NCBI RefSeq assembly: GCF_034424625.1
Contig: NZ_CP139977.1
Span: 124,001 to 188,000 of the forward strand
Source: Janthinobacterium lividum
GTDB lineage: Bacteria; Pseudomonadota; Gammaproteobacteria; Burkholderiales; Burkholderiaceae_D
Direction: 5' to 3'
Length of the DNA stretch: 64,000 bases
Below the pieces are notes generated by a model, which ran no database searches, had not been told where the DNA came from, and saw nothing but the letters and a program-made list of their open reading frames with translations. Shown here piece by piece: positions 1,588 through 23,849 of the stretch. Position 1 is the stretch's first letter, and each line of letters opens with the position of its first letter. The position numbers were made by a program, and so were the translations under genes.

Positions 1588-1590
1588 TTT

Positions 1591-2766
1591 ATGTCCCCTG
1601 AAAACCACCCCCACCATGAGGCGGCGGCACCATCGCGTCAACGCTGGACCTTGCGTGTGGCCATCGTTGGCCTGCTGTGCCTGATTGCCTGGGCTTCCGT
1701 ATCAAAGATCGATCAGGTCACTCATGCCCAGGCGCAGATTATCGCCAGCGCCAAGACGCAAGTCATCCAGTCGCCGGAATTGGGCGTCATTACCCATATC
1801 CACGTCAAGGAAGGCGAGACGGTCAAGGCTGGCCAGCTGCTGGTGACGCTGGAAAAGGAAAGAGCGCAATCGGCCGTGAGCGACAGCAATGCCAAGATCG
1901 CCGCCTTGCGCATCGCACTGACGCGCCTGCATGCCGAAGTGTACGGCCGCCCGCTGGCGTTCGATGACACGCTACGCCCGTATGCGGACTATATCCGTAA
2001 CCAGACAGATCTCTACAACAAGCGTAAGCAAGCCATTGACCAGGACGTATTGTCGTTGCAAAACATGCGGGTACTGGCCGACCGGGAGTTGCAAATGAAT
2101 TTGAGCCTGGAAGCGACCGGCGACGTCGGGCACGGCGAGATACTGCGCTTGCGCCGATCGGTGGCCGACCTGAATGCGCAGATCACCAACAAGCGCAACA
2201 AATACTTCCAGGATGCACAGGCCGAAATGACCAAGGCGCAGGAAGACTTGAATACCCAGGGCGAAATGCTGCGTGACCGCAGCCAGCTGCTTGAGCATAC
2301 GGAACTGATGGCGCCGGCCGATGGCATCGTCAAAAATATCAAGATTACCACCATAGGCGCTGTGATCCGTGCGGGCGACATTGTCATGGAAATGTTGCCG
2401 CTGGGCGGAGACCTGATCGCCGAGACAAAAATTATGCCGGCCGACATAGGCTTCATCGTTAAGGGCCAGTCGGCCTCGGTCAAGCTTGATGCCTATGATT
2501 ATTCCATTTTCGGCGCGATGCAAGGCGAAGTCATTTACATCAGTGCCGACACCATCACCGAGGAAACGCAAAAAGGGCAGCTATCTTATTACCGAGTCAA
2601 TATCCGCATCCGGGAAAGCGAATTCAAGGGCAAGAAGGCCAGGCAAATCGAGGTACGCCCCGGCATGACGGCCAGTGTCGACATCAAGGCCATGGAGCGC
2701 ACGGTATTGAGCTATCTCACCAAACCCATCAGCAAGACCTTTTCCCAGTCCATGGGCGAGCGCTAA
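1591..2766 (+). CDS. HlyD-family periplasmic adaptor of type I secretion
   Basis: Membrane-fusion protein (391 aa) linking the upstream ABC transporter to an outer-membrane channel. A short cytoplasmic N-terminus is followed by one transmembrane helix (about residues 29-43). Next come a lipoyl-like half-motif (HIHVKEGETVKAGQLL), a long alpha-helical hairpin rich in Ala, Gln and Lys (about 85-230), and a second lipoyl half plus beta-barrel region (MAPADGIVKNI onward). The C-terminal RPGMTASVDIK stretch is typical of HlyD/LapC/AprE adaptors. It starts 3 nt after the transporter stop. Length and domain order are normal for the family. Partner assignment to the giant adhesin is inferred from proximity. 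Confidence 0.92.
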   Translation: MSPENHPHHEAAAPSRQRWTLRVAIVGLLCLIAWASVSKIDQVTHAQAQIIASAKTQVIQSPELGVITHIHVKEGETVKAGQLLVTLEKERAQSAVSDSNAKIAALRIALTRLHAEVYGRPLAFDDTLRPYADYIRNQTDLYNKRKQAIDQDVLSLQNMRVLADRELQMNLSLEATGDVGHGEILRLRRSVADLNAQITNKRNKYFQDAQAEMTKAQEDLNTQGEMLRDRSQLLEHTELMAPADGIVKNIKITTIGAVIRAGDIVMEMLPLGGDLIAETKIMPADIGFIVKGQSASVKLDAYDYSIFGAMQGEVIYISADTITEETQKGQLSYYRVNIRIRESEFKGKKARQIEVRPGMTASVDIKAMERTVLSYLTKPISKTFSQSMGER

Positions 2767-6600: not shown

Positions 6601-9600
6601 CGGGCTTCATACCGTCGATACCCAAGGCATTCAGTTGCGCCAGGGTTGGCGGCGTTGTGCCAGCCGCGCTGGTTAACACAGCATTGACGGCTTGCACAAT
6701 TGCCCGGATTTTAGGCTGCGTATTAGTGGCCTCGCCATCGATAGGCAGGTTGTTCAAGGCGTCGTTGACGGCCGACAGGATGCCGTTCGTCAGCGGCAAC
6801 TGGATACCGGCGTTAGCGTACATTTCCTGGTTTACCGTTGTCGGCGACGCATTGTTGTCTTCCGCCGCATCGCTGATCGACTTGATCGCTATGGCGGTTG
6901 ATACCACGCTGAGCAATTCGGGGATGGTATCTACTGAACCGCCGTCGTTCCTCGTGGCGGCGATTGCTGCCTGCACCGCTTTCAGGTTAGCTAACGTCAC
7001 ACCGGGAATGCCCAGCGCTTGCAGTTGCTCCAGGGTTGGCGGCGCGCCGTCGGCCGCTGCGGTTTTCACTGCCTGGACGGCATCCACTATCGCCTGAATT
7101 TTTGCAGCCGTATTAGTAGCAGCGCCATTGATAGGAGTGCTATTCAAGGCGTTGTTCACTGCTGCCAGGTTGTCTTGTGTCACCCCTGTCACGCCAGCGG
7201 CGCTGTACATTGCCTGGTTCTGCATCGCCGGCACGGCGTTGTTGGACTGCGCGGCAACGCTGATCGCATTGATCGCTACCGCCATCGATACCACACCCTG
7301 CAATTCGGCGATGCGGTCAACACCAGCGCCGCTGTCTTCCGTGGCGTTGATCGCTGCCTGCACCGCTGCCAGGTTAGCGTCCGACACGCCAGTGATGCCC
7401 AACGTCTCCAGTTGCTGCCTGGTTGGTGGCGTGCCGCCAGCCGCTGCCGCTTTGACCGCGTTGACAGCATTCACAATGGTCTGAATTTTAGGCCGCGTAT
7501 CGGTGCGCTGACCATCGATAAGCGGGCTGTTCAGAGCATCGTTCACTGCATCCAGGTTATCACCCCTGACACCCGTCACGCCAGCGGCGGTATACAGCAC
7601 TTCGCCAGCCGTGCTAGGCGACGCATTGTTCGCTTGCGCCGCATCGCTAATCGCCGTGACCGCACTGACCATCGCTGTTGCCTGACCAGCCGCGACCAGG
7701 CCCTGCAACTTGGCAAGCGTGTTGACACCAGAACCATCGTTCGCAGTGGCTTCTATCGCTTTTTGCACCGCTTCCAGGTTAGCTGGCGTCACATTGGTAA
7801 TGCCCAGCGCTCTCAGCTGCGCCGCGGTCGGCGGCGTGCCGCCAGCCGCTGCCGCTTTGACTACCTGCAGGTTATCGACAATCGCCTGGATTTTTGCCAC
7901 CGTATCGGTGGCTGGGCCATCGACCACGCCACCGTTCAAGACACTGTTAATTGCCGCCAGGTTATCTCCCGACACACCTGTCACGCCGGCGGTGTCGTAC
8001 ATCGCCGCGCTTGCCGTTCTAGGCGACGCATTGTTGGCTTGCGCCGCATCGCTGATTGCCTTAACCGCATTGGCCACCGCTGCCTCCTGGCCAGCCGCGA
8101 CCGCGCCCTGCAGTTTGGCTAGGGTGTTGACGCCAGAGCCGTCATCCGCCGTGGCCGCTATCGCAGCCTGCACCGCTGCCAAGTTAGCTGGCGTCACGCC
8201 GGTAATACCCAGCGTTTTCAGCTGAGCCTCGGTTGGGGGCGTGCCGCCGTTCGCTGCCGCTTTGACTACCTGCAGGTTATCGACAATCACCTGGATTTTC
8301 GCAGCCGTATCGGTGGCTGGGCCATCGACTGCGCCGTTCAAGACATTGTTGACGGCCTCCACGTTATCGCGCGTCACACCGTTAACCCCAGCGGTGTCGT
8401 ATGTTGCTGCCGTAGGCGTACCGTTCGTCGCAGTGTTCGCTTGCGCCGCATCACTGATCGCCTTGAGCGCTTCCTTAATCGGTTGACTTTCTGGAAGATT
8501 ATCCACAATCGCCTGGATTTTTTCAGGCGTATCCGTGGCTGCGCCATCGACCGCCGCGGTGTTCAAGGCAACATTCAACGCTGCCAAGTTGTCTTTCGTC
8601 ACGCCATTGATCCCGGCCTTGGCATACGTTTCCTGACTTGGTGTTGTCGCGGTCGCATTGTCTCCTTGCGCCGCATCCTTGATCGCATTGAGGGCATCCA
8701 GAATCACCTGGGCTGCTTTAGCTGCATCCACAGCCGCCTGAGCGACGCCAGCATGCACCACCGCCTGCAATTTCTCAAGCGTGTTGACGCCAGTGCCGTC
8801 ATCCGCCGTGGCCGCTATCGCTGCCTGCAGCGCTGCCAGGTTAGCTGGCGTGACATCGGTAATGCCCAGCGTTTTCAGCTGTGCCTCGGTCGGCGGCGTG
8901 CCGCCAGCCGCTGCCGCTTTGACTACCTGCAGGGTATCAACAATCGCCTGGATTTTTGCAGCAGTATCGGTGGCTGGGCCATCGACTGCGCCGTTCAAGA
9001 CACTGTTGAGTGCCTCCAGGTTATCGCCCGACACACCCTCCACGCCAGCGGCGGCGTACAGCGCTGCGCTTGCCGTGCTAGGCGAGGCATTGTTGGCTTG
9101 CGCCGCATCGCTGATCGCCTTGATCGCATTGGCCACTGCTGCTTCCTGACCAGCCGTGGCCAGACCCTGCAATTTAGCTAGCGTGTTGACACCAGAGCCG
9201 TCGTCTGCGGTGGCCGCTATCGCAGCCTGCAACGCTGCCAGGTTCAGTGGCGTCACATCGGTAATGCCCAGTCCTTCCAGTTGCGCCAGGGTGGGCGGCG
9301 TACCGCCGGCCGCTGCCGCTTTGACTACCTGCACGTTATCCACAATCGCCTGGATTTTTGCAGCCGTATCGGTGGCTGGGCTATTGACCGCTATGGAATT
9401 CAAGACACTGTTGACTGCCTCCAGGTTATCGCCTGACACACCTGTCACGCCAGCGGCGGTGTATGTGCTCACACTTGGCGTCGTTGCCGATGCCGTGTTG
9501 TCTTGCGCCGCATCCTGAATGGCCTCGATAGCATCGGATTTTGCTTTGGCAACTACCGCGCCATCCACAAGCGCCTGGATTTTTTCAGGAGTATCGGCGG

Positions 9601-12600
9601 CGGCGCCATTGATCGCTGCACTGTTCAACAGTGCGTTCACCGCTGCCAGGTTGTCCGACGTCACACCTTTAATACCGCCGGCGGCGTACGTGTCCACGCC
9701 TGTCGTTGTCGCCGAGGCAGTGTCGTTTTGCGCAGCATTCTTAATGGCTTCGATCGCGTCGCTTTTCGCCTCGACAGCTACGATATCATTCACGATGGCT
9801 TGGATCTTTGCAGGCGTATCGGTTGCTGCGCCATCGATCACTGCGTTGTTCAACAGTGCGTTCACCGCTGCCAGGTTGGCCGATGTCACACCTACAACAC
9901 CGGCGGCAGCGTACGTGTCCTCGCTAGGCGTCGTTGGCGATGCAGTGTTGCCTTGCGCCGCATTCCGAATAGCGTCAATAGCTGTGGTAGTGATCGCACC
10001 ATCGACAAGAGCCTGGATTTTTTCGGGTGTACTGGCGGCTGCGCCATCGATCGCTGCGTTGTTCAGCAGTGCGTTCACCGCTGCCAGGTTGTCCGCTGTC
10101 ACCCCTTCAATGCCGGCGTTGGCGTAGGTGTCCACGCTTGTCGTCGTCGGCGATGCCGTGTTGTCTTGCGCCGCATTCTTAATGGCTTCGATGGCGTCAG
10201 TTTTTGCTTTGGCAGCGATCGCGCCATCCACAATAGACTGGATTTTGGCAGCCGTATTCACGGCCGGGCCGTCGATTAATGCGCTGTTCAACAGCGCGTT
10301 TACCGCTGCCAGGTTGTCCTCTGTCACGCCCTTGATACCGGCGTTGGCGTAGGTATCCACGCTTGTCGTCGTTGGCGACGCCGTGTTGCCTTGCGCGGCA
10401 TCGTTGATCGCCTTGAGTGCGTCCTTAATCGGCTGACTCTCTTTAAGACTATCCACAATCGACTGGATCTTTGCGGGCGTATCGGTGGCTGCGCCGTTGA
10501 TCGCTGTACTGTTCAAGGCTTCGTTCAACGCTGCCAGATTCGCCGACGTTACGCCTCTGACACCGGCGTTGGCATACGTTTCCAGGCTTGGTGTTGTCGC
10601 CGACGCCGTGTTGTCTTGCGCCGCATGCTGAATGGTGTCGACAGCATCGGTCTTTACTTTGGCAGCTATTGCGCCATTCACAATAGCCTGGATTTTGGCA
10701 GCCGTATTTGCGGCTGGACCATCAATAGCGGCGTTGTTCAACAGCGCGTTTACCGCTGCCAGGTTGTCCGCCGTCACGCCTTGAACACCGGCGACGGCAT
10801 ACGTGTCCACGCTTGTCGTTGATGGAGACGCCGTGTCGGCTTGTGCCGCATCGCTAATTGCCTTGAGCGCGTCTCTGATCGGCTGGCTCTCTTTAAGACT
10901 ATCCACAATCGCCTGGATTTTTTCAGGCGTATCGGCGGCTGCGCCAGTGATCGCACCACTGTTCAGGGCTTCGTTCAACGCTGCCAGATTAGCCGACGTT
11001 ACGCCATTAACACCGGCGCTGGCATACGTTTCCACGCTCGGTGTTGTCTCCGACGCTGTGTTGTCTTCCGCCGCATCATGAATGGCGTCGATAGCGTCGA
11101 CCTTTGCTTTGTCAGCGATCACGCCATCCACTATCGCCTGGATTTTTTCAGGGGTATCGGCGGCTGCGCTGTTTGTCGCTGGGCTATTCAACTGCGCGTT
11201 GACCGCTGCCAGGTTGTCCGCCGTCACGCCCTTGATACCGGCATCGGCATAGGTTTGCACGCTTGTCGTCGTTGGCGACGCCGTGTCGCCTTGCGCCGCA
11301 TGCTGAATAGCGTCAATGGCTTTGTCAGCGATCACGCCATTCACAATCACCTGGATTTTTTCAGGTGTATTGGCGGCTGTGGCATCGGTCCCTGGGCTGT
11401 TCAACTGCGCGTTGACCGCTGTCAGGTTGTCCGCTGTCACGCCCTTGATACCGGCGTCAGCGTAGGTTTGCACGCTTGTCGTCGTTGGCGATGCCGTGTC
11501 ACCTTGCGCCGCATTCTTAATGGCTTCGATGGCGTCGGTCTTTTCTTTGGCAGCGATCGCGCCATCCACAATAGCCTGGATTTTTTCAGGTGTATTCGCG
11601 GCTGAGCCATCGGTCCCTGGACTATTCAACTGCGCGTTGACCGCTGCCAGGTTGTCCGCCGTCACACCCTTGATACCGGCATCGGCATAGGTTTGCACGC
11701 TTGTCGTCGTTGGCGACGCCGTGTCGCCTTGCGCCGCATGTTGAATAACGTCAATGGCTTTGTCAGCGATCACGCCATTTACAATCGCTTGGATTTTTTC
11801 AGGGGTATCGGCGGCTGCGCTGTTTGTCTCTGGGCTATTCAACTGCGCGTTGACCGCTGCCAGGTTTTCCGCCGTCACGCCCTTGATACCGGCATCGGCA
11901 TAGGTTTGCACGCTTGTCGTCGTCGGCGACGCCGTGTCGCCTTGCGCCGCATGTTGAATAGCGTCGATAGCTTTGTGAGCGATCACGCCATTCACAATCG
12001 CCTGGATTTTTTCAGGTGTATTGGCGGCTGTGGCATCGGTCCCTGGGCTGTTCAACTGCGCGTTCACCGCTGCAAGGTTCTCCGCCGTCACGCCCTTGAT
12101 ACCGGCATCGGCAAAGGTTTGCACGCTTGTCGTCGTTGGCGACGCCGTGTCGCCTTGCGCTGCATGCTGAATAATGTCGATGGCTTTGGCCGCGATCACG
12201 CCATTCACAATCGCCTGGATTTTATCAGGCGTATTGGCGGCTGCGCCATTGGTCGCTGGGCTGTTCAGCTGCGCGTTGACCGCCGCCAGGTTGTCCGCCG
12301 TCACGCCCTTGATGCCGGCGTCGGCGTAGGTGTCCACGCTTGTCGTCGTTGGCGATGCCGTGTCACCTTGCGCCGCATTCTTAATGGCTTCGATGGCGTC
12401 GGTCTTTTCTTTGATAGCGATCGCGCCATCCACAATCGCCTGGATTTTTTCAGGTGTATTGGCGGCTGTGGCATCGGTCCCTGGGCTGTTCAACTGCGCG
12501 TTCACCGCTGCCAGGTTATCCGCCGTCACGCCCTTGATGCCGGCGTCAGCGTAGGTTTGCACGCTTGTCGTCGTTGGCGACGCCGTGTCGCCTTGCGCCG

Positions 12601-15600
12601 CATGCTGAATAGCGTCAATGGCTTTGTCAGCGAGCACGCCATTCACAATCGCCTGGATTTTTTCAGGTGTATCGGCGGCTGCGCCATTGGTCGCTGGGTC
12701 GTTCAACTGCGCGTTCACCGCTGCCAGGTTGTCTGCTGTCACACCCTTGATACCGGCATCGGCGTAGGTGTGCACGCTTGTCGTCGTTGGCGATGCCGTG
12801 TCACCTTGCGCCGCATGCTGAATAGCGGCAATAGCTTTGGCAGCGTTTACGCCATCCACAATAGCCTGGATTTTTTCAGGTGTATTGGCGGCTGTGGCAT
12901 CGGTCGCTGGGTTGTTCAACTGCGCGTTCACCGCTGCCAGGTTGTCCGCCGTCACACCCTTGATACCGGCATCGGCGTAGGTTTGCACGCTTGTCGTCGT
13001 TGGCGACGCCGTGTCGCCTTGCGCCGCATGTTGAATAACGTCAATAGCTTTGGCAGCGATCACGCCATTCACAATCGCCTGGATTTTTTCAGGTGTATCG
13101 GCGGCTGCGCCATTGGTCGCTGGGCTGTTCAACTGCGCGTTGACTGCTGCCAGGTTGTCCGCTGTCACACCCCTGATACCGGCGTCGGCGTAGGTTTGCA
13201 CGCTTGTCGTCGTTGGCGACGCCGTGTCGCCTTGCGCCGCATGCTGAATAGCGTCAATGGCTTTGTCAGCGATCACGCCATTCACAATCGCCTGGATTTT
13301 TTCAGGTGTATTGGCGGCTGTGGCATCGGTCCCTGGGCTGTTCAACTGCGCGTTGACCGCTGTCAGGTTGTCCGCTGTCACGCCCTTGATACCGGCATCG
13401 GCAAAGGTTTGCACGCTTGTCGTCGTTGGCGACGCCGTGTCGCCTTGCGCCGCATGCTGAATAATGTCGATGGCTTTGGCAGCGATCACGCCATTCACAA
13501 TCGCCTGGATTTTTTCAGGTGTATTGGCGGCTGTGGCATCGGTCCCTGGGCTGTTCAACTGCGCGTTCACCGCTGCCAGGTTGTCCGCCGTCACGCCCTT
13601 GATACCGGCGTCGGCGTAGGTGTCCACGCTTGTCGTCGTTGGCGATGCCGTGTCACCTTGCGCTGCATTTTTAATGGCTTCGATGGCATCGGTCTTTTCT
13701 TTGGCAGCGATCGCGCCATCCACAATCGCCTGGATTTTTTCAGGTGTATTGGCGGCTGTGGCATCGGTCCCTGGGCTGTTCAACTGCGCGTTGACCGCTG
13801 TCAGGTTGTCCGCTGTCACGCCCTTGATACCGGCATCGGCAAAGGTTTGCACGCTTGTCGTCGTTGGCGACGCCGTGTCGCCTTGCGCCGCATGCTGAAT
13901 AATGTCGATGGCTTTGGCAGCGATCACGCCATTCACAATCGCCTGGATTTTTTCAGGTGTATTGGCGGCTGTGGCATCGGTCCCTGGGCTGTTCAACTGC
14001 GCGTTCACCGCTGCCAGGTTGTCCGCCGTCACGCCCTTGATGCCGGCGTCGGCGTAGGTGTCCACGCTTGTCGTCGTTGGCGATGCCGTGTCACCTTGCG
14101 CCGCATTCTTAATGGCTTCGATGGCGTCGGTCTTTTCTTTGATAGCGATCGCGCCATCCACAATCGCCTGGATTTTTTCAGGTGTATTGGCGGCTGTGGC
14201 ATCGGTCCCTGGGCTGTTCAACTGCGCGTTCACCGCTGTCAGGTTGTCCGCTGTCACGCCCTTGATACCGGCATCGGCAAAGGTTTGCACGCTTGTCGTC
14301 GTTGGCGACGCCGTGTCGCCTTGCGCCGCATGCTGAATAATGTCGATGGCTTTGGCAGCGATCACGCCATTCACAATCGCCTGGATTTTTTCAGGTGTAT
14401 TGGCGGCTGTGGCATCGGTCCCTGGGCTGTTCAACTGCGCGTTCACCGCTGCCAGGTTGTCCGCCGTCACGCCCTTGATACCGGCATCAACGTAGGTGTC
14501 CACGCTTGTCGTCGTTGGCGATGCCGTGTCACCTTGCGCTGCATTTTTAATGGCTTCGATGGCATCGGTCTTTTCTTTGGCAGCGATCGCGCCATCCACA
14601 ATAGCCTGGATTTTTTCAGGTGTATTGGCGGCTGGGCCATCGGTTGCTGGGCTGTTCAACTGCGCGTTCACCGCTGCCAGGTTGTCCGCCGTCACACCCT
14701 TGATGCCGGCATCGGCGTAGGTTTGCACGCTTGTCGTCGCTGGCGACGCAGTGTCGCCCTGCGCCGCATGCTGAATAACGTCAATGGCTTTGGCCGCGAT
14801 CACGCCATTCACAACAGCCTGGATTTTTTCAGGGGTATCGGCGGCTGCGCCATTGGTCGCTGGGCTGTTCAATTGCGCGTTGACCGCTGCCAGATTGTCC
14901 GCTGTCACGCCCTTGATGCCGGCATCAACGTAGGTGTCCAGGCTTGTCGTCGTTGGCGACGCTGTGTCACCTTGCGCCGCATTCTTAATGGCTTCGATGG
15001 CGTCGGTTTTTTCTTTGATAGCGATCGCGCCATCCACAATAGCCTGGATTTTTTCAGGTGTATTGGCGGCTGGGCCATCGGTTGCTGGGCTGTTCAACTG
15101 CGCGTTCACCGCTGCCAGGTTGTCCGCCGTCACACCCTTGATGCCGGCATCGGCGTAGGTTTGCACGCTTGTCGTCGCTGGCGACGCCGTGTCGCCCTGC
15201 GCCGCATGCTGAATAACGTCAATGGCTTTGGCCGCGATCACGCCATTCACAACAGCCTGGATTTTTTCAGGGGTATCGGCGGCTGCGCCATTGGTCGCTG
15301 GGCTGTTCAACTGCGCGTTGACCGCTGCCAGATTGTCCGCTGTCACGCCCTTGATGCCGGCATCAACGTAGGTGTCCAGGCTTGTCGTCGTTGGCGACGC
15401 TGTGTCACCTTGCGCCGCATTCTTAATGGCATCGATGGCGTCGATTTTTTCTTTGATAGCGATCACGCCATTCACAATAGCCTGGATTTTTTCAGGCGTA
15501 TTGGCGGCTGGGCCATCGGTCGCTGGGCTGTTCAACTGCGCGTTCACCGCTGCCAGGTTGTCCGCCGTCACGCCCTTGATACCGGCAACAATGTACGTGT

Positions 15601-16582
15601 CGATGCTTGGCGTCGTTGGCGACGCCGTGTTGCTTTGCGCCGCAAACTGAATGGCGTCAATGGCGCCTTCTTTCGACTGTTCCTGCATTGGATCCGCCTG
15701 GACCGGTTTGGCTGCTGCGACGATGCCAGCATTCACGACTGCCTGCAATTCCTCAATCGTGTCGACACCCGTGCCGTCATCCGGCGTGGCGGCGATTGCT
15801 TTCTGTACCTCTGCCAGGTTCGCAGGAGTTACGCCCTTCACCCCCAGAGTTTCTAGTTGTGCCTCACTTACCGGCGTACCGCCGGCAGCGCCGCCTTTCA
15901 CAGCATTGACGGCGTTTACAATTGCTTGAATTTTTTCAGGCGTACCAGTGGCGGCGCCATCGGTCGCAGCGCTGTTCAACTGTGCGTTCACCGCTGCCAG
16001 ATTGTCAGCCGTCACGCCCTTGATGCCGGCGGCAGTGTACGTGTCCACGCTTGTCGTCGTTGGCGACGCTGTGTTGCCTTGCGCCGCATCGCTGATAGCC
16101 GTGATGGCTTGCACCGTTTTTTTACTCTTGCTTGACTGCATTCCTGAGGATGCTGCACCAGCCACAAGAAGTGCACCACCAATTCCTGGCAACAATGCCA
16201 TGTCCATCATTGGCAATGACAGTGCATCCGGAGTTTCTGAATACATCAGATAACCATCATCAAGTGCTTGCAAGGGCGAAGTTGACTGAGAAATACTGAT
16301 GGAGCCGTCAGCCGAGCTATTGATATCGAAAAAACTCGGATTGCCAGGACTAGCATCCCTGTAGAAGTTATTCAATTCCAGCACCAACTGATCGTCCACG
16401 GTGACATGCAAATTGTCGCCGACACGTTTGACCTTCATACCGGCTGGCGCCTTTCCCGTAGCCGGGTTTACTAATTCATAATGCATGCCAGGCCGGACGC
16501 TGAGGCGTTTCGAGAGTTTAGCAGGAACAGCGCTTTGTGTTGCCGCGCCAGAATTTGATGTTTGAATAAGATTAAGTGTCAT
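3647..16582 (-). CDS. Giant repetitive surface adhesin (Bap/LapA-like), 4311 aa
   Basis: Predicted type I-secreted cell-surface or biofilm adhesin. Residues 1-120 resemble the BapA-type prefix domain, followed by a Gly/Ala-rich hydrophobic stretch (about 122-147) before the repeats. About forty repeats of 71-75 residues follow, with the pattern A-I-x-x-I-x-x-A-A-Q, TASPTTTSVxTY, AGIKGVTADNLAAVNAQL, TPEKIQAIV; they look all-helical. Towards the C-terminus a second class (GGTPPTxxQLxxLGI, VTPANLAAVQAAIAAT) alternates with the first. The last about 420 residues are non-repetitive: an Ig-like region, a cadherin-like region (about 4020-4115), a Ca-binding-like DRDGNGIAGSKGD, and an end rich in W and G (NYWSS) resembling DUF1566/Lcl C-termini. 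No RTX nonapeptides are seen. The ATG is preceded by AAAGAGC at suitable spacing. It follows the OmpA-like gene after 57 nt. Export by the 1-2766 transporter is inferred. Confidence 0.92.
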   Translation of the reverse strand: MTLNLIQTSNSGAATQSAVPAKLSKRLSVRPGMHYELVNPATGKAPAGMKVKRVGDNLHVTVDDQLVLELNNFYRDASPGNPSFFDINSSADGSISISQSTSPLQALDDGYLMYSETPDALSLPMMDMALLPGIGGALLVAGAASSGMQSSKSKKTVQAITAISDAAQGNTASPTTTSVDTYTAAGIKGVTADNLAAVNAQLNSAATDGAATGTPEKIQAIVNAVNAVKGGAAGGTPVSEAQLETLGVKGVTPANLAEVQKAIAATPDDGTGVDTIEELQAVVNAGIVAAAKPVQADPMQEQSKEGAIDAIQFAAQSNTASPTTPSIDTYIVAGIKGVTADNLAAVNAQLNSPATDGPAANTPEKIQAIVNGVIAIKEKIDAIDAIKNAAQGDTASPTTTSLDTYVDAGIKGVTADNLAAVNAQLNSPATNGAAADTPEKIQAVVNGVIAAKAIDVIQHAAQGDTASPATTSVQTYADAGIKGVTADNLAAVNAQLNSPATDGPAANTPEKIQAIVDGAIAIKEKTDAIEAIKNAAQGDTASPTTTSLDTYVDAGIKGVTADNLAAVNAQLNSPATNGAAADTPEKIQAVVNGVIAAKAIDVIQHAAQGDTASPATTSVQTYADAGIKGVTADNLAAVNAQLNSPATDGPAANTPEKIQAIVDGAIAAKEKTDAIEAIKNAAQGDTASPTTTSVDTYVDAGIKGVTADNLAAVNAQLNSPGTDATAANTPEKIQAIVNGVIAAKAIDIIQHAAQGDTASPTTTSVQTFADAGIKGVTADNLTAVNAQLNSPGTDATAANTPEKIQAIVDGAIAIKEKTDAIEAIKNAAQGDTASPTTTSVDTYADAGIKGVTADNLAAVNAQLNSPGTDATAANTPEKIQAIVNGVIAAKAIDIIQHAAQGDTASPTTTSVQTFADAGIKGVTADNLTAVNAQLNSPGTDATAANTPEKIQAIVDGAIAAKEKTDAIEAIKNAAQGDTASPTTTSVDTYADAGIKGVTADNLAAVNAQLNSPGTDATAANTPEKIQAIVNGVIAAKAIDIIQHAAQGDTASPTTTSVQTFADAGIKGVTADNLTAVNAQLNSPGTDATAANTPEKIQAIVNGVIADKAIDAIQHAAQGDTASPTTTSVQTYADAGIRGVTADNLAAVNAQLNSPATNGAAADTPEKIQAIVNGVIAAKAIDVIQHAAQGDTASPTTTSVQTYADAGIKGVTADNLAAVNAQLNNPATDATAANTPEKIQAIVDGVNAAKAIAAIQHAAQGDTASPTTTSVHTYADAGIKGVTADNLAAVNAQLNDPATNGAAADTPEKIQAIVNGVLADKAIDAIQHAAQGDTASPTTTSVQTYADAGIKGVTADNLAAVNAQLNSPGTDATAANTPEKIQAIVDGAIAIKEKTDAIEAIKNAAQGDTASPTTTSVDTYADAGIKGVTADNLAAVNAQLNSPATNGAAANTPDKIQAIVNGVIAAKAIDIIQHAAQGDTASPTTTSVQTFADAGIKGVTAENLAAVNAQLNSPGTDATAANTPEKIQAIVNGVIAHKAIDAIQHAAQGDTASPTTTSVQTYADAGIKGVTAENLAAVNAQLNSPETNSAAADTPEKIQAIVNGVIADKAIDVIQHAAQGDTASPTTTSVQTYADAGIKGVTADNLAAVNAQLNSPGTDGSAANTPEKIQAIVDGAIAAKEKTDAIEAIKNAAQGDTASPTTTSVQTYADAGIKGVTADNLTAVNAQLNSPGTDATAANTPEKIQVIVNGVIADKAIDAIQHAAQGDTASPTTTSVQTYADAGIKGVTADNLAAVNAQLNSPATNSAAADTPEKIQAIVDGVIADKAKVDAIDAIHDAAEDNTASETTPSVETYASAGVNGVTSANLAALNEALNSGAITGAAADTPEKIQAIVDSLKESQPIRDALKAISDAAQADTASPSTTSVDTYAVAGVQGVTADNLAAVNALLNNAAIDGPAANTAAKIQAIVNGAIAAKVKTDAVDTIQHAAQDNTASATTPSLETYANAGVRGVTSANLAALNEALNSTAINGAATDTPAKIQSIVDSLKESQPIKDALKAINDAAQGNTASPTTTSVDTYANAGIKGVTEDNLAAVNALLNSALIDGPAVNTAAKIQSIVDGAIAAKAKTDAIEAIKNAAQDNTASPTTTSVDTYANAGIEGVTADNLAAVNALLNNAAIDGAAASTPEKIQALVDGAITTTAIDAIRNAAQGNTASPTTPSEDTYAAAGVVGVTSANLAAVNALLNNAVIDGAATDTPAKIQAIVNDIVAVEAKSDAIEAIKNAAQNDTASATTTGVDTYAAGGIKGVTSDNLAAVNALLNSAAINGAAADTPEKIQALVDGAVVAKAKSDAIEAIQDAAQDNTASATTPSVSTYTAAGVTGVSGDNLEAVNSVLNSIAVNSPATDTAAKIQAIVDNVQVVKAAAAGGTPPTLAQLEGLGITDVTPLNLAALQAAIAATADDGSGVNTLAKLQGLATAGQEAAVANAIKAISDAAQANNASPSTASAALYAAAGVEGVSGDNLEALNSVLNGAVDGPATDTAAKIQAIVDTLQVVKAAAAGGTPPTEAQLKTLGITDVTPANLAALQAAIAATADDGTGVNTLEKLQAVVHAGVAQAAVDAAKAAQVILDALNAIKDAAQGDNATATTPSQETYAKAGINGVTKDNLAALNVALNTAAVDGAATDTPEKIQAIVDNLPESQPIKEALKAISDAAQANTATNGTPTAATYDTAGVNGVTRDNVEAVNNVLNGAVDGPATDTAAKIQVIVDNLQVVKAAANGGTPPTEAQLKTLGITGVTPANLAAVQAAIAATADDGSGVNTLAKLQGAVAAGQEAAVANAVKAISDAAQANNASPRTASAAMYDTAGVTGVSGDNLAAINSVLNGGVVDGPATDTVAKIQAIVDNLQVVKAAAAGGTPPTAAQLRALGITNVTPANLEAVQKAIEATANDGSGVNTLAKLQGLVAAGQATAMVSAVTAISDAAQANNASPSTAGEVLYTAAGVTGVRGDNLDAVNDALNSPLIDGQRTDTRPKIQTIVNAVNAVKAAAAGGTPPTRQQLETLGITGVSDANLAAVQAAINATEDSGAGVDRIAELQGVVSMAVAINAISVAAQSNNAVPAMQNQAMYSAAGVTGVTQDNLAAVNNALNSTPINGAATNTAAKIQAIVDAVQAVKTAAADGAPPTLEQLQALGIPGVTLANLKAVQAAIAATRNDGGSVDTIPELLSVVSTAIAIKSISDAAEDNNASPTTVNQEMYANAGIQLPLTNGILSAVNDALNNLPIDGEATNTQPKIRAIVQAVNAVLTSAAGTTPPTLAQLNALGIDGMKPENLAAVQAAIAATADDGTEVNTIAKLQGVATAAQAAAVDSAVKAISDAAQANNASPRTASLALYKAAGVEDVSNDNLEAVNSVLNGAVVDGPATDTAAKIQAIVDNLQVVKAAAAGGTPPTEAQLKTLGITDVTPANLAALQAAIAATADDGSGVNTLAKLQGVLATGQATSAVKSISDAAQANNASPRTVSEAVYTAAGVTGVSQDNLATVNGVLNGTVNGAATDTAAKIQAIVDAVNTVMDAAAGGTPPTLAQLQTMGIPGVRPANLGVVQAAIEATADDGSAVNTFPKLRDVVSKAIAIKSISDAAQANNASAGVVPAAMYASAGVQLPATNGLLLAVNDALNSRLIDGEAANTQPEIQAIVNAFNAVLTGAAGATPPTLEQLKTLGITGVTPENLDKVQAAISATANDGTGVNTIARLQRVAETGQLAAAVKTISDAAQDNDATLTTPSLDTYANAGVKGVTSGNQEFVVDILKTQLIDRAATDTTAEIQGIVDAANAVLSGAAGGTPPTLAQLNALGITGVTAATLPAMQAAIEKTSNDGRGVDTIAELQAVINAVDVIAPTVSSVRISGSSGNTRSDTLKEGNGVQLEVTMSENVVVSGAPRLQIMVGSTVVDAVYDASASAKDPTQLIFTTSILAGQTDTNGISIGANSLSLNGGTIADATGNQAVLTHTAVADNKAYMVDTSAPVFTSGATATLKGGSISTSTIVYDAAATDPSGVTFSLGTSLDNAKFNIDSSSGVVTLKSTQTYYTAEMQKDRLLSVNITADDGIGHVSTQKVDITMKRPDSVDVWFDKEHTKAAGTLRFPVEVDAGTVYYFWDRDGNGIAGSKGDLMTTADISKYFQFSHDHSASSPTGEGTTSLRYGSLYTAKGDMLWVALPQVGNELSISANTAVGGNPKTNGSNEASPHWDYHAIYDAYNGKGTVAGVDGTPPNWVGGNYWSSEIPLPGQHYLHNSGTGIMSNGLDKDPTSLAYVALQVL
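11100..15660. repeat. Near-identical 219-bp tandem repeats with 438-bp higher-order period
   Basis: Inside the adhesin gene the DNA repeats every ~213-225 bp with very high identity. Two alternating unit types occur: 71 aa with QHAAQGDTASP, and 75 aa with KNAAQGDTASP plus an EKTD insertion. Together they give a 146-codon dimer. Equivalent points recur exactly 438 bp apart at 13620, 14058, 14496, 14934 and 15372. Repeats outside this core (3.7-11 kb and 15.7-16.1 kb) are more diverged. This is the pattern expected from recent unequal crossover or slippage in the N-terminal half of the protein. Confidence 0.9.
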
Positions 16583-19146: not shown

Positions 19147-19383
19147 TGGACTGCACCCTGCACGCGAATGTTTGCGCACAAGTGGACCATCTCATGGATG
19201 AAGAACAGCTTGCCGCCATTGCCCTCACGTGAAAAATCGTCGCGGTACTGGGCCGGCATGAAGTGCAGAGTCCGGCAGCGGGCCATAGATGGCGTTGAGC
19301 ATGCCGATGCCGCCCGCCGGCACGGCTGGGAACAGTTTCAGCTGCTGGAAGCTGTTTTCACGCGCAGCCATCACTTCGGCATG
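19147..19383 (-). pseudogene. Metallopeptidase-type effector fragment (HExxH), frameshifted
   Basis: On the minus strand, [19 protein letters not shown] and [15 protein letters not shown] continue after a frameshift as [16 protein letters not shown] and LFFIHEMVHL. The HEMVH zinc-binding motif after a 'DFS...LFIHE' lead is like the zinc-metallopeptidase domains found in polymorphic or type VI toxins. The coding sequence then runs straight into the transposase fragment, so it is truncated just after the motif. It cannot make an active enzyme as it stands. Just upstream (about 19446-19500) another frame ends DILQGFLLNPAERRLLPR*, probably the tail of a further lost gene. Confidence 0.5.
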
Positions 19384-19514
19384 CCGCAGCTGCAGGCAGC
19401 GGACGACAGCGGCATCGACTACGACGACATCGTGACGGAAGCATCAGCGCGGCAGCAAGCGGCGCTCGGCGGGGTTGAGCAGGAAGCCCTGCAGGATGTC
19501 CTGCATTTCTGTAA

Positions 19515-19706
19515 TCAAGACAGACTACGGGATTTAGTGATCGTAAAGCGCCTGGCGGCGAGCACCAGATTGGCGAAGGCGAACAGCTTAAACAGCTGTG
19601 CAGTGTTTTTGGCCAGGCCGCGATAGCGCGTTTTGCGATGCCAGAACAGGTTCTTCATGACATGAAACGGATGCCCGACCTTCGCCCGGACGCTGGCGAT
19701 TGCAGC
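19515..19706 (-). pseudogene. IS5-family transposase, C-terminal fragment
   Basis: The minus strand encodes KFAAIASVRAKVGHPFHVMK, then NLFWHRKTRYRGLAKNTAQL, then FKLFAFANLVLAARR, ending at TGA 19515-19517. This is the characteristic C-terminus of IS5-family DDE transposases (VRAKVEHPFrVIK...TRYRGLAKNTAQL). The upstream part is absent; the frame meets a stop just before KKF, next to the end of the following gene. A matching-family N-terminal fragment lies at 29470-30063. Confidence 0.8.
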
Positions 19707-19715
19707 GAATTTTTT

Positions 19716-20114
19716 TCACCACGGTGCAAACATCTTCCACACAGCCACTGCAACCTGAAAAAGACAGCCCATCATGGCCGCGAACAATAGCCCAATGTGT
19801 ATCTTTAAGAACGCATCCATTTTTTCCTGGCTCACCGCTTGCGGCATCGCTACCGTTTTAAAGCGGATACCTTGCCCTGCCAGCAGCAACAGCAAGACGG
19901 TCAGTGGAAAGGATTGCAGGAAAATTCTCTCGGGATACAGAATCCACGCCATTCCGGCGATGATGGAAAGCAATGCCAACAGATCGCAAAAAATATACAG
20001 AAATTTTCTTCGTTGAAATCCTGCTAGCGACGCGAGCAGCACGCCATTTTTCTTCTTAAATAAATGTTCCAGTACCAACCATTGTGAACCTGACTTGTCG
20101 ACGGCTATATGCAT
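19716..20114 (-). CDS. Small membrane protein, candidate immunity protein
   Basis: A 132-aa protein without a recognised family. The ATG at 20114 (MHIAVDKSGSQ) is preferred over an upstream TTG because AAGAAAG precedes it. It has a basic, soluble N-terminal quarter (LFKKKNGV, QRRKF), then three hydrophobic segments. These are about LYIFCDLLALLSIIAGMAWI, FPLTVLLLLLAGQGI and, after a polar stretch, IHIGLLFAAMMGCLFQVAVA. It lies just downstream, on the same strand, of the double-glycine peptide gene at 20273-20488. Small multi-spanning proteins in this position are usually bacteriocin immunity proteins; here that is an inference from context only. Confidence 0.6.
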   Translation of the reverse strand: MHIAVDKSGSQWLVLEHLFKKKNGVLLASLAGFQRRKFLYIFCDLLALLSIIAGMAWILYPERIFLQSFPLTVLLLLLAGQGIRFKTVAMPQAVSQEKMDAFLKIHIGLLFAAMMGCLFQVAVAVWKMFAPW

Positions 20115-20177
20115 TAAAAGTTCTTTCTTCAATTCAGTCGTATGACTTTCCCCAGGCAACAGGCGGCCGCAATACTG

Positions 20178-20276
20178 TCACAGAAATATTGCGGCCGGCG
20201 TCACTATCAGCAACAGGATAGCAAGTAGCTGGGTATGTTCAGCCCGCTTTATCGCTTGCCTTATTAGCCCGATCAA
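20178..20276 (-). CDS. 32-residue hydrophobic peptide ORF, coupled to the peptide precursor
   Basis: A TTG start overlaps the TGA stop of the precursor gene (TTGA). It encodes MIGLIRQAIKRAEHTQLLAI and ends in a single membrane-spanning stretch (LLAILLLIVTPAAIFL). The stop falls inside a hairpin (cggccgcaata 20164-20174 with tattgcggccg 20187-20197, plus ctg/cag closing pairs). It could be a small accessory peptide, a second bacteriocin component lacking a leader, or a chance frame. Evidence is limited to overlap and hydrophobicity. Confidence 0.3.
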   Translation of the reverse strand: MIGLIRQAIKRAEHTQLLAILLLIVTPAAIFL

Positions 20277-20488
20277 TATGAATTGTACGCATACAACGCG
20301 GCAGCACCAATCATGATGCTGCCGCCCAGAGCTTGTCCACCTGGCACGACAGCAATGCCCCCTCCGATGCTGGCGATGCCACCCCGGAAACCAGCCGTGC
20401 TGGAATAGTCGCTAGCTGACATGTGATCCGAGCAAAATGCGCGACCGCCCGAAATGTCTTGAATTTCAATTTCCGATAAAATTTGTAT
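20273..20488 (-). CDS. Double-glycine-leader peptide precursor, bacteriocin/microcin-like
   Basis: A 71-codon frame. A leader of the classic double-glycine type (QILSEIEIQDISGG, hydrophobic residues at regular spacing and GG before the cut) is followed by a 56-residue core. The core begins RAFCSDHMSASDYSSTAG and becomes a Gly/Ala/Ile-rich hydrophobic stretch with GG pairs and GxxxG-like spacing (GGIASIGGGIAVVPGGQALG), ending YAYNSY. Such leaders are removed by C39-peptidase ABC exporters. The expected start position is ATA at 20488, not ATG; a good Shine-Dalgarno (GAGG) lies 5 nt before it. Start may be ATA, the later ATT, or lost by an ATG-to-ATA change. It is followed by a membrane protein gene (19716-20114), a candidate immunity gene. 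No family is recognised for the core. Confidence 0.65.
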   Translation of the reverse strand: MQILSEIEIQDISGGRAFCSDHMSASDYSSTAGFRGGIASIGGGIAVVPGGQALGGSIMIGAAALYAYNSY

Positions 20489-20744
20489 TCTTACCTCATT
20501 AATTAAATGTGACTGTTCAACAGCTATTGAATTGTCTAGCTACGAAAATTTTACTCACCTTCATGAAATCAATCCATCATGACGGCTCAGTAAATTTACT
20601 GCCTTGCAACTGCTTCGCATATAGGACTGCTCTAAAAAATGTGATTTTTCAGCAGCTATCTCACCGGCAGTGAGCGGGCGTGAGCGTGGGCCATTCAAAG
20701 GCAAGAGATCCATCAGTTAATTGTATGGCATCCATCGCATAGCC
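20489..20744. promoter_or_regulatory. AT-rich upstream region of the double-glycine peptide gene
   Basis: AT-rich DNA at 20500-20640 precedes the peptide gene on the minus strand. It ends in the Shine-Dalgarno GAGGTAAG at about 20490-20497. I cannot name a specific promoter box. Beyond about 20690 the sequence merges into the decayed transposase. Confidence 0.35.
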
Positions 20745-21340
20745 ATCGGGTGTGCAAACCACCACAAACTTACAGCCTGGTGGCTGATGCCAGCGGCAAA
20801 AGCCCGGTACGCGGCATGACCATCGGTTATCAGCAGCACGTTCTGGTCGATGACGGGCAACAACAATGGTGCAGCTGCGCCTTAGTCAACGCCTCTTAGC
20901 CCCTGATGAAATTGTGCGGTCGCACACCACCAAGATGGATACTTATTCACTGGAGATGCCGCTCTGGTGGGGATGGCCACCTGGGCGGCGGGCCGCATGC
21001 CTCATCTGCTTGGCTGATTTCCCGGCTCGAGCAGATATAACTCGTCGGCCTCAACGACGCCGCGCAAGCCATGGGGCCTTTTCGTCTTCGTTTCGCTGAG
21101 AAAACAGTGGCGCCGGCGAGATGTGGCGTGGCGGTGCAGTCCTAGCTGTTGTGTGGCCTGGAGCACCGAGGCGGAACCGAACAACACTCTCGCCGCACCG
21201 CCTTGTCGTGCAAATGGGCCGGCGGGCTGCCCGTCAAAGCACTGGAAGGTACGCCCGCAGGGCACGCAGCGGTAGCGTTGCAGACCCTGCGCATGGCCAT
21301 GTCGATGCAAGTGATGCGAGTGGCAGGCGGGACAGGCCAA
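20745..21340 (-). pseudogene. IS1595-family transposase, N-terminal/central fragment
   Basis: On the minus strand, CPACHSHHLHRHGHAQGLQR then YRCVPCGRTFQCFDG is the zinc-ribbon N-terminus of ISXO2-like transposases. After frameshifts come FSETKTKRPHGLRGVVEADE (first DDE Glu/Asp region) and LPVIDQNVLLITDGHAAYRA (second catalytic Asp), ending near AGISHQAV. The expected continuation (RVxGAxHxQNVNxYHSR) is found at 18888-19146. Several frameshifts and stops make it non-functional. Confidence 0.75.
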
Positions 21341-21679: not shown

Positions 21680-22603
21680 TTACTCATAGGCATCCAGCCT
21701 GAGCTGTTCATGGGGCAGGAATTGGGCGTCGCGCAATCGCTGCAGCGGTTCGGCAGCCTGCTCTGCAGTGTGGTCGGCGAGCAGCCACTTGCGTTCTTCC
21801 TGATACCGCCTTATCCGCTGCTGCCATTGCCCCTCTGCCCTGTCAACCTCGGCCAGGCGCGCGGCAGCTTCCGGCGAAAAGGTCGTGGCGCGCAAACGGT
21901 ACACCTCGTTCTCACCCGCCCCCGTCGCGCGCAGCGCTAGCACAGCCTCCTCCAGCTTGAGCACCTTTTGCGGCGCCTCGCGTTCAGCAAGCAAGGCGGG
22001 CGGCATCTGCCGGTCCAGGATCGCTAGTTTTTCCACCTGTTGCGCCTCACTCAGAGAAGTGTCGGACATCACCTCCATGCGGGCGACGGCGTCGTTGTCG
22101 TAACTATCTTCCGCGCCAAACAGCCCCTCGCTTTCCTTGGGTGTAAAGTAATTAGCGCGCAACTGACGCATGGCTTGCTGCCGCAAGCGCACTCCCGCAA
22201 GCATGTCAGCGCCAGACGGCAGACTCTCTTCGACGGCGACCAGGGCTTGTCTGTAATCCAGATAGGCGCCCAGCAGGCGCTTGGCTTCACGGGCATGCGC
22301 CGGCTTGAGCCGACGTTCCAGTTCTGCCTCGATCTGGCTGCGGATAGCGGCCAGGCTGGTTTCACCAAGTCTGGCCAGATAATAGTCGAACAAACGACCC
22401 AGTTCCGCGTCAACCACCAGTTGATCGCCGATATCGACGCTGACTGCGCCGTCGGGACGCGTTCCTTCCATCGAGCGTACAAAGGCAAACAGGTCCGGTT
22501 CTGTTTTTTCGTGGAGAGCGGCTGGAGGGTTCATGTGGTCCAGCATGGTATACAGTAAGATCGTCGCCACTCCAGTTCCCACAACAATTGCCCATGTACG
22601 CAT
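21680..22603 (-). CDS. Lipase-specific foldase (lipase chaperone)
   Basis: A periplasmic, membrane-anchored steric chaperone that folds the cognate secreted lipase (307 aa). The N-terminal anchor is WAIVVGTGVATILLY. The conserved family motif near residue 90 reads GRLFDYYLARLGE (family RxxFDYYLSAxGE; the Arg at the start of the motif is kept). The rest is predicted all-helical and charged, as in Lif/LifO proteins. The start at 22603 (second ATG) is chosen because GAGGAG then sits 6 nt upstream; an ATG 6 nt earlier abuts it. It lies directly after the lipase gene on the same strand (about 15 nt gap), the usual lipase-foldase operon. Confidence 0.93.
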   Translation of the reverse strand: MRTWAIVVGTGVATILLYTMLDHMNPPAALHEKTEPDLFAFVRSMEGTRPDGAVSVDIGDQLVVDAELGRLFDYYLARLGETSLAAIRSQIEAELERRLKPAHAREAKRLLGAYLDYRQALVAVEESLPSGADMLAGVRLRQQAMRQLRANYFTPKESEGLFGAEDSYDNDAVARMEVMSDTSLSEAQQVEKLAILDRQMPPALLAEREAPQKVLKLEEAVLALRATGAGENEVYRLRATTFSPEAAARLAEVDRAEGQWQQRIRRYQEERKWLLADHTAEQAAEPLQRLRDAQFLPHEQLRLDAYE

Positions 22604-22618
22604 TGCCATCTCCTCTGC

Positions 22619-23530
22619 CTACAGGCCCAAGCCCTGCAGGCGATTTGCCTGGTCGCGGAATAAGGTCACAGGATTGGGTTGCACCAGGCTGACAATACCA
22701 AAAAACTGGTTGACGCTATCCAAGTGATTCATAATGTAATCGTCGCGTATCACCTTACCCAGATGGCTCGAGCAACTGCTGACCATGCCATCGTTTTTTT
22801 CGCCGTTGAAGTACAGGGATGTCATAAACAGCAATTTGTCGCTGCTGTCCAAGATCGGGCGCGTTCGCGGCTGCGCACCGCTCCAGGAAAAGTAACGCAC
22901 TCCGTTGACTTCATGGGCGCCTTCCCCGCATGCCGTGGCTGGAAGACCGGCATTGTGGCGCATATTAAATTTAATGGAACCTAACGTGCTGAGGGATTCC
23001 AGGGCGGCCGCACCATTTTGCGGTAAGCCTCCGTTGCCGGAAAGAAAGCTGACTAGCCGCGCACCCGCGCCGACTAGAACCGCGCCGCCGACAGGCAGGT
23101 TTTTCCTGAGCGCATCGGCAACCTTCGAGCCCTTGTTGACACCCGAGACACTGGTCACGGAAGCTACCAGCTCAGGATGCACGGAGGCCACATAACGCGC
23201 GGTGGGAGCACCGTGACTATGTCCGATCAAATTGACTTTGGCGGCACCGGTCGCCGCAAGAATCTGGCGTACCTGAACCAGCAACTGCTCACCTCTTACC
23301 TCGGTTCTATTGGCAGCAGACACATTCACAATATGTACCTGGGCACCGCCGTCGCGCAAAGCTTTCGGTATGCCGTAGAAATATTCGACGGGGCCTATTC
23401 TGTCATAGCCAAGCAGGCCATGCACAAGCACGATAGGATACTTGGTCTGGGTATGACCCACAGCCGAGGCGGAGGACGACAGCAGGCAGGAGCTCCCGAT
23501 GAACAGGAACAGACAGATACGATTTCTCAT
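22619..23530 (-). CDS. Secreted triacylglycerol lipase (foldase-dependent, family I.1/I.2-like)
   Basis: An extracellular lipase of the Pseudomonas/Burkholderia type (303 aa). The ATG at 23530 is preferred (GGAG 7 nt upstream) because it opens into a signal peptide (MRNRICLFLFIGSSCLLS then SSASA). An upstream in-frame start would add 17 residues. It shows the oxyanion motif YPIVLVHGLLG, the nucleophile elbow GHSHG (Ser about 105), NDGMVSS in the catalytic-Asp/Ca region, and MNHLDSVNQ supplying the catalytic His and the Ca site. Its foldase is encoded next. Lipases of this type normally cross the outer membrane by type II secretion, so the 33-42 kb operon is a candidate route. Confidence 0.95.
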   Translation of the reverse strand: MRNRICLFLFIGSSCLLSSSASAVGHTQTKYPIVLVHGLLGYDRIGPVEYFYGIPKALRDGGAQVHIVNVSAANRTEVRGEQLLVQVRQILAATGAAKVNLIGHSHGAPTARYVASVHPELVASVTSVSGVNKGSKVADALRKNLPVGGAVLVGAGARLVSFLSGNGGLPQNGAAALESLSTLGSIKFNMRHNAGLPATACGEGAHEVNGVRYFSWSGAQPRTRPILDSSDKLLFMTSLYFNGEKNDGMVSSCSSHLGKVIRDDYIMNHLDSVNQFFGIVSLVQPNPVTLFRDQANRLQGLGL

Positions 23531-23849
23531 GACATCTCCATTGATGAATATAAGGTCGCTTGCAAAAGCAGGCGACTGCACTTTCTTCGCAAGCTCATCT
23601 GAAACACCTATCAGCTAGCGAGGCAAAAAACACCGTATGAAGATGCTAATTATTTAGTGATCACAATGACATAGGAATGGTCTGAAAAGTCCGATGGTGC
23701 TCAACTGAAAGAAAAATGCCGTGCGTGTCTGGTGCATATTCGGCCGTCCGCTCCTGTCTTGAGAGCGAGGCTTTTTAGGCGCATTCCGATTTCCCATTGA
23801 AATGGCTGTCAATATACTGGGTGCATCTCAATCCACTAGGAAAACCGCC

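What the first reader, a model, noticed from the sequence alone, without database searches (positions are those of the whole stretch)
19716..20490. Hidden double-glycine-leader peptide gene with a candidate immunity gene
Seen: a 71-codon minus-strand frame (20273-20488) reads QILSEIEIQDISGG, then a Gly/Ala-rich 56-residue core with GG pairs, one Cys and a YAYNSY end. A membrane protein gene follows downstream. Known: such leaders are the cleavage signal for C39-type ABC exporters of bacteriocins and microcins, and immunity genes usually sit next to them. Inferred: an antibacterial or signalling peptide locus of a type I cannot name, in a region otherwise full of IS wreckage. The expected start is ATA rather than ATG, with a good ribosome site in front, so it is either a rare start or a recent start-codon loss. 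The type I transporter at the left edge is cut before the point where a peptidase domain would show.
Basis: partly seen in the sequence, partly recalled or inferred. Interest (0 to 1): 0.82.

Follow-up and report, generated by a model that had tools for sequence, protein, structure and literature searches.

The report
Broken microcin gene, intact immunity gene
The window holds the wreck of a small secreted bacterial weapon gene with its probable protection gene still open beside it, and three related bacteria have likewise lost the weapon gene and kept the protection gene.

Summary
The frame is real. Unchanged, it finds 7 relatives (best E 3.5e-33), the 4 named ones all Janthinobacterium; a profile adds Pseudoduganella buxea. 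Pfam and NCBIfam have no model for it. Intact relatives are 72-75-residue precursors: a 15-residue double-glycine leader and a 57-60-residue Gly-rich core with two cysteines. In G018 the peptide gene lies 0.6 kb from a C39-peptidase exporter and adaptor pair; a roughly 95% identical pair lies on the window's own 440-kb contig, about 246 kb away. The left-edge transporter is not it. So this is a class II microcin-like family. The window copy is decayed: no start codon, a premature stop that removes the second cysteine, and two substitutions at residues invariant in relatives. The downstream membrane gene (19716-20114) is open; it accompanies the peptide in 6 of 6 peptide-bearing genomes among 392 of the family. 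Three further Janthinobacterium genomes keep it at one shared locus with the peptide gene deleted, each with different endpoints; a fourth has only a fragment of it. Antibacterial activity is inferred, not shown.

The parts
20273..20488 (-). Decayed microcin-like precursor gene (71 codons and a premature stop; no ATG/GTG/TTG start in front of the leader)
20444..20488 (-). 15-codon double-glycine leader of that frame (without a start codon)
20276..20443 (-). Gly-rich core (56 codons left), with one of the two conserved Cys; two substitutions at residues invariant in A3
19716..20114 (-). Candidate immunity gene, 132 aa, open, three hydrophobic segments
20489..20508 (-). Conserved upstream stretch with a ribosome-site-like motif (seen by eye), altered in the window
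   Evidence: alignment
19411..20771 (-). Cassette block, 95.9% identical to Janthinobacterium sp. BJB426 (L005 9718-11065)
19187..19417 (-). Mosaic of pieces of neighbouring genes of the BJB426 locus (one taken by eye for eda); in BJB426 the matching stretch lies on the other side of the block

Best explanation
A mobile two-gene cassette (microcin-like precursor and membrane immunity protein) of Janthinobacterium, whose precursor gene has decayed in this genome while the immunity ORF stays open. In intact relatives the precursor would be cut after the double glycine and exported by a CvaA/CvaB-like pair: a C39-peptidase ABC transporter and an HlyD-type adaptor, with a TolC-like outer channel assumed. 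The 57-60-residue Gly-rich core, perhaps closed by one disulphide, would then attack the inner membrane of close relatives, and the downstream membrane protein would protect the maker. In the window no leader-bearing peptide can start normally, so the strain probably does not make this peptide and at most keeps immunity. Shown by sequence: homology, leader, linkage, exporter genes, lesions, loss of the peptide gene in three relatives. Inferred: export by this pair, disulphide, antibacterial action, immunity function, mobility.
For: Homologues with normal starts. A C39 ABC transporter (C39 domain E 9.5e-36) and adaptor divergent from peptide plus immunity in G018, the adaptor 0.6 kb from the peptide gene. 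93-96% identical exporter pairs in G000, G016 and G004; 55/42% in P. buxea, about 3.4 kb from its peptides. Immunity profile in 10 of 392 family genomes, which include all 6 with the peptide. Low dN/dS between intact LM6 and BJB426/G018 peptides (0.15, 0.19). Window branch of the peptide gene: 5 non-synonymous or nonsense against 2 silent changes; BJB426 branch 0 against 1. Deletion of the peptide gene in three genomes at one locus with immunity kept.
Against: No activity, expression or secretion data. dN/dS of the closest intact pair, BJB426-G018, is 1.09, so constraint is not seen in every comparison. The window immunity branch (4 non-synonymous, 2 silent bases) fits neutrality, so that gene may be decaying too; G017 keeps only a fragment of it. 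The exporter is far from the peptide in three of the five Janthinobacterium carriers (G000, G004, G016) and only distant relatives of it (44-56%) are in G003, on other contigs than the peptide. Neither peptide nor immunity protein has a Pfam match, nor the peptide an NCBIfam one; PHROGs and PADLOC were not tried. No promoter-like site was found in front of the frame.
Confidence: 0.82

Rival explanations
1. The window gene still works through a rare ATA or ATT start codon and makes a shortened one-Cys peptide.
For: The frame is otherwise open for 71 codons and a ribosome-site-like stretch (by eye) precedes it.
Against: Four departures at positions invariant in A3 (start, residues 35 and 63, second Cys), all on the window branch.
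Confidence: 0.06
2. The intact family is a secreted double-glycine peptide that is not a weapon: a signal, a biofilm peptide or a self-lysis peptide, as in the Neisseria nap island or Synechococcus. (This concerns the intact family and could hold together with decay of the window copy.)
For: Neisseria Nap peptides have a GG motif, a C39 peptidase and an immunity-like gene but no detectable antimicrobial activity (PMC11798529, passages); GG proteins of Synechococcus serve biofilm control (PMC4997328, start of abstract in a listing).
Against: A membrane protein gene is linked in 6 of 6 peptide carriers, and it is kept in three genomes where the peptide is deleted, which suits immunity to others' peptide better than a signalling role.
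Confidence: 0.17
3. A two-peptide bacteriocin, the window and most relatives having one half. (Also about the intact family.)
For: P. buxea has two tandem paralogues before one immunity gene; GxxxG motifs occur in the cores.
Against: One match each in the five Janthinobacterium genomes with the peptide; the two P. buxea peptides are alike, not two different halves.
Confidence: 0.08
4. A chance open frame.
For: Short, no start codon, no Pfam or NCBIfam model.
Against: Homologues at E 3.5e-33 with the same leader and core.
Confidence: 0.01

Closest known systems
Class IIa microcins (microcin V type: CvaC precursor, Cvi immunity, CvaA/CvaB exporter)
   Same: Size, double-glycine leader (GG, or GA in P. 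buxea), adjacent small membrane gene, C39 ABC exporter and adaptor, two cysteines, no Gly/Ser-rich tail (features as given in PMC10233263, passages)
   Different: No Pfam or NCBIfam match; Oxalobacteraceae (genus and family placement recalled), not Enterobacteriaceae; the exporter pair is near the peptide in G018 and P. buxea but far from it in G000, G004 and G016; in the window the precursor is broken
Class IIb siderophore microcins (H47, M, E492)
   Same: P. buxea has two HlyC-family ORFs behind its peptide and immunity genes, as MchD/MceI are HlyC-like (PMC3281104, passages)
   Different: No HlyC match in the five Janthinobacterium peptide carriers (the search also matched 0 of 14 control genomes, P. 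buxea being its only positive); no Gly/Ser-rich C-terminus; the next P. buxea ORF gave no match to anything
Orphan bacteriocin immunity genes (E. coli plasmids, PMC12546727, passages and section 11; pneumococcal blp 'cheaters', PMC4517551, passages)
   Same: Immunity kept without a working toxin system
   Different: Here in Janthinobacterium, by deletion of the peptide gene at one locus and by point changes on a large second contig; the pneumococcal cheaters are described as having a broken transporter gene, not a lost peptide gene
Neisseria nap island peptides
   Same: Double-glycine peptides with a C39 peptidase and an immunity-like gene in another betaproteobacterium (class recalled)
   Different: Naps are cationic, 16-36-residue mature peptides linked to self-lysis (PMC11798529, passages); this family is longer, near neutral and comes with an ABC-C39 exporter

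Membership tests
[quoted passage not shown]
   A3, 11 rows, 10 different proteins; 15-residue leaders, cores 57-60 aa
Class II microcin (intact relatives) | Adjacent membrane immunity gene | tested here: met
   Linked membrane ORF in 6 of 6 peptide-bearing family genomes; three hydrophobic segments in 7 of 8 rows of A4, two in the other; protective function not tested
Class II microcin (intact relatives) | C39-peptidase ABC transporter and adaptor encoded close by | tested here: inconclusive
   Adaptor 0.6 kb from the peptide gene in G018 and about 3.4 kb in P. buxea; about 246 kb in G000, about 141 kb in G004 if the contig is circular, on another contig in G016. In G003 the full-length exporters are on other contigs, and a 291-aa frame with a C39 match lies about 5 kb from the peptide. 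An exporter relative (E<=1e-100) is somewhere in 5 of 5 genus carriers
Class II microcin (intact relatives) | Antibacterial activity of the exported core | not testable with these tools
   none
Class IIa | Cysteines able to form a disulphide, no siderophore tail | tested here: met
   Two Cys in 11 of 11 rows, no Gly/Ser-rich tail; the bond itself not tested
Class IIb | Gly/Ser-rich C-terminus | tested here: not met
   Tails are YAYNSYCS with 1-2 more residues in A3
Class IIb | HlyC-like and SELO-like maturation pair | tested here: not met
   HlyC in 1 of 6 peptide carriers, P. buxea only; no SELO-like partner recognised there
Functional class II microcin gene (window copy) | Translatable leader-bearing precursor | tested here: not met
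   No ATG/GTG/TTG before 20422; premature stop
TolC-type outer channel | Present in genome | not tested
   assumed

The most novel reading that the evidence does not exclude
Janthinobacterium carries an undescribed mobile microcin-immunity cassette in which the toxin is shed again and again while immunity is kept, as expected if the microcin is a live selective force in nature; and in Pseudoduganella buxea a tandem, lysine-free pair of the same peptides sits with two HlyC-type acyltransferases, pointing to a microcin modification on a residue other than lysine.
Probability: 0.3. Interest if true: 0.68.

Novelty: new member of a known kind. Interest (0 to 1): 0.46.

Why it matters
A 2022 review counts all functionally confirmed microcins as coming from Enterobacteriaceae (PMC10233263, passages). 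A family in Oxalobacteraceae with exporter and candidate immunity would extend class II. The set of relatives (intact; broken by point changes in the window; peptide gene deleted with different endpoints in three genomes; immunity ORF open in 8 of the 9 genus genomes that hold any of it, a fragment in the ninth) is a natural series for a question that PMC12546727 (section 11) calls unsettled: whether orphan immunity genes arise by toxin loss or by immunity gain. Here three look like toxin loss.

Tried and rejected
Left-edge transporter as exporter: rejected (one search covered only the part inside the window). Plasmid records: no protein match; at DNA level 164 records match, none over 80% of the query, and 14 of the 20 listed rows are IS5-family transposases. 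Library models: none for the peptide; for the immunity protein one sub-cut-off NCBIfam hit to a sugar symporter (E 0.0048, 16 bits against a cut-off of 375) that I take as membrane-protein noise. PHROGs and PADLOC were not tried. Solved structures: none for the peptide profile or the P. buxea 593-aa ORF. I took that ORF for MchC/SELO-like by eye; searches gave no support, so I do not claim it. Promoter scan: 1 promoter-like site against 1.8 expected, and it lies inside the gene. Further double-glycine peptides beside exporters of other genomes: a motif scan of 30 loci (about 1.5 kb on each side of the exporter gene) gave hits in 7, all of one look-alike kind that I take for an out-of-frame reading of the adaptor gene (not checked); none convincing. 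Association of peptide with exporter in the genus: 5 of 5 carriers against 18 of 35 others, p about 0.05 by my own arithmetic, weak. One search was a script that stopped on an empty row; it was re-run corrected. The alignment mixed strands and was not used; one search replaced it.

Papers: no paper on this peptide family was among the rows shown; some searches showed only 20 of 39, 15 of 232 and 8 of 23 papers, and that library holds open-licence PMC papers only. PMC13174018 was looked at in passages: its candidates are from Pantoea, Erwinia and Xanthomonas, and the word Janthinobacterium does not occur in it.

Full report
Observation. It begins with an Ile codon, and no ATG, GTG or TTG lies before 20422, which is already behind the leader. 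The membrane ORF follows on the same strand. Its conserved start is at 20114, giving 132 aa with three hydrophobic segments.

Real homologues. The unchanged frame finds 7 proteins at E<=1 among 15 candidates, the best 94% identical over its whole length. Four of the seven bear a source name; all four are Janthinobacterium, and one is called 'Bacteriocin' by UniProt. A profile search adds Pseudoduganella buxea and unnamed proteins: 12 proteins at E<=0.1, with 7993 candidates scored. By whole-genome search the peptide is in 5 of 40 genomes of the genus and 6 of 392 of the family, the window's own included. Pfam and NCBIfam have no model for it.

Anatomy of intact relatives. In alignment A3 (11 rows, 10 different proteins; I left out the window copy, P0008, which has an internal deletion, and P0014-P0018) all have a normal start and a 15-residue leader ending GG or GA. 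The core is 57-60 residues, 16-25% Gly, near neutral, with exactly two Cys and an invariant YAYNSYC motif near the C-terminus.

Machinery. In G018 the peptide gene lies 0.6 kb from a divergent adaptor gene (HlyD family), which is followed by a 711-aa ABC transporter with a strong C39 peptidase domain. The window's own genome has that pair at about 95% identity on the same 440-kb contig (C2:390084-393566), about 246 kb from the cassette, with another double-glycine frame beside it. BJB426 (G016) and LM6 (G004) have it at 93-96%, far from their peptides. In the genus an exporter relative (E<=1e-100, a limit I chose) is in 23 of 40 genomes, the 5 peptide carriers included; in G003 these are only 44-56% identical. 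The left-edge transporter belongs beside the 4311-aa repetitive ORF; a six-frame search of the whole genome for the C39 domain does not find it.

State of the window copy. Against BJB426 with G018 as outgroup, the window branch of the peptide gene carries five non-synonymous or nonsense changes and two silent ones; the BJB426 branch carries one silent change. Four of the five hit positions invariant in A3: the start, residues 35 and 63, and the second cysteine, lost to a premature stop. Relatives are therefore intact and this copy is a recent wreck. Elsewhere intact peptides show dN/dS of 0.15-0.19 (LM6 against BJB426 and G018) but 1.09 for BJB426 against G018, which may be fast core divergence or small numbers.

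Immunity. The 132-aa protein has relatives in 10 of 392 family genomes: all 6 with the peptide, three full-length ones without it (G029, G032, G036) and one fragment (G017). The three orphans sit at the same locus as the intact LM6 cassette, with the peptide gene deleted. The endpoints differ in all three, and G032 keeps a 33-base remnant of the peptide's 3' end. In the immunity tree, drawn without support values, LM6 and G032 are sisters, with G029 and then G036 outside, so three separate losses are the simplest account. P0008 and P0018 look like two more damaged peptide alleles; I could not see their neighbourhoods. Against a tidy story: G017 has lost nearly all of the immunity gene too, and selection on the kept gene is mixed. 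Branch counts, non-synonymous:silent, are G032 3:10 (p 0.0009 against neutral), G029 11:8 (p 0.18), G036 20:12 (p 0.24), LM6 5:8 (p 0.02), window 4:2 (p 0.54). Only G032 among the toxin-less shows constraint, and the window's immunity gene could also be decaying.

How it came here. The block 19411-20771 matches BJB426 at 95.9%. There it lies behind a gene that I take by eye for eda, and 200-base direct repeats (87.5%) lie on its two sides. In the window the stretch that lies before the block in BJB426 lies after it, as expected from a circular or tandem intermediate. The main contig of the window's genome has that eda-like stretch (95%) without the cassette. I infer a move from such a site to the 440-kb contig; the mechanism is not shown.

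A variant. P. buxea has two tandem peptides, then the immunity gene, then two HlyC-family ORFs (E 3e-13 and 2e-8), and an exporter pair at 55/42% about 3.4 kb away. HlyC was not found in the other five carriers (0 of 14 control genomes matched either). HlyC enzymes classically acylate lysine (recalled), yet neither P. buxea peptide has a lysine. HlyC-like MceI/MchD act in class IIb microcin maturation (PMC3281104, passages). This is a lead, not a result.

Verdict. A new, apparently uncharacterised class II microcin-like family, of which the window holds a decayed member with an open immunity gene. The kind is known; the family and its repeated toxin loss are the news.

Noticed in passing
L005 8525-11185 (BJB426) and window 19187-19417: Short pieces (82-200 bases) of neighbouring genes are duplicated around the cassette in BJB426, and the window shows the order permuted.
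   Followed up: partly
L008 10707-11210 and 11259-11753 (P. buxea): Two HlyC-family acyltransferase ORFs behind a tandem, lysine-free microcin-like peptide pair and its immunity gene.
   Followed up: partly
L037 6023-6286 (+) (C2:389023-389286): Another double-glycine-leader frame beside the window genome's own C39 exporter, a possible working cargo; no Pfam match.
   Followed up: partly
L038 10478-10711 (-) and 11607-11801 (-): Two further different double-glycine-leader frames beside the exporter of G016 (BJB426); the exporter may serve changing cargo.
   Followed up: no
L037 1523-4504: TauD-family dioxygenase, thioesterase and phosphopantetheinyl transferase genes about 2.6 kb before the exporter on C2, suggesting a nonribosomal product cluster next door.
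   Followed up: no
window 3647-16582 (-), with 1-2766 (+): A 4311-aa highly repetitive ORF with an ABC transporter and an HlyD-type adaptor beside it: a giant secreted adhesin by its look.
   Followed up: no
window 21680-23581 (-): An alpha/beta-hydrolase gene with a lipase chaperone gene next to it, probably a secreted lipase pair.
   Followed up: no
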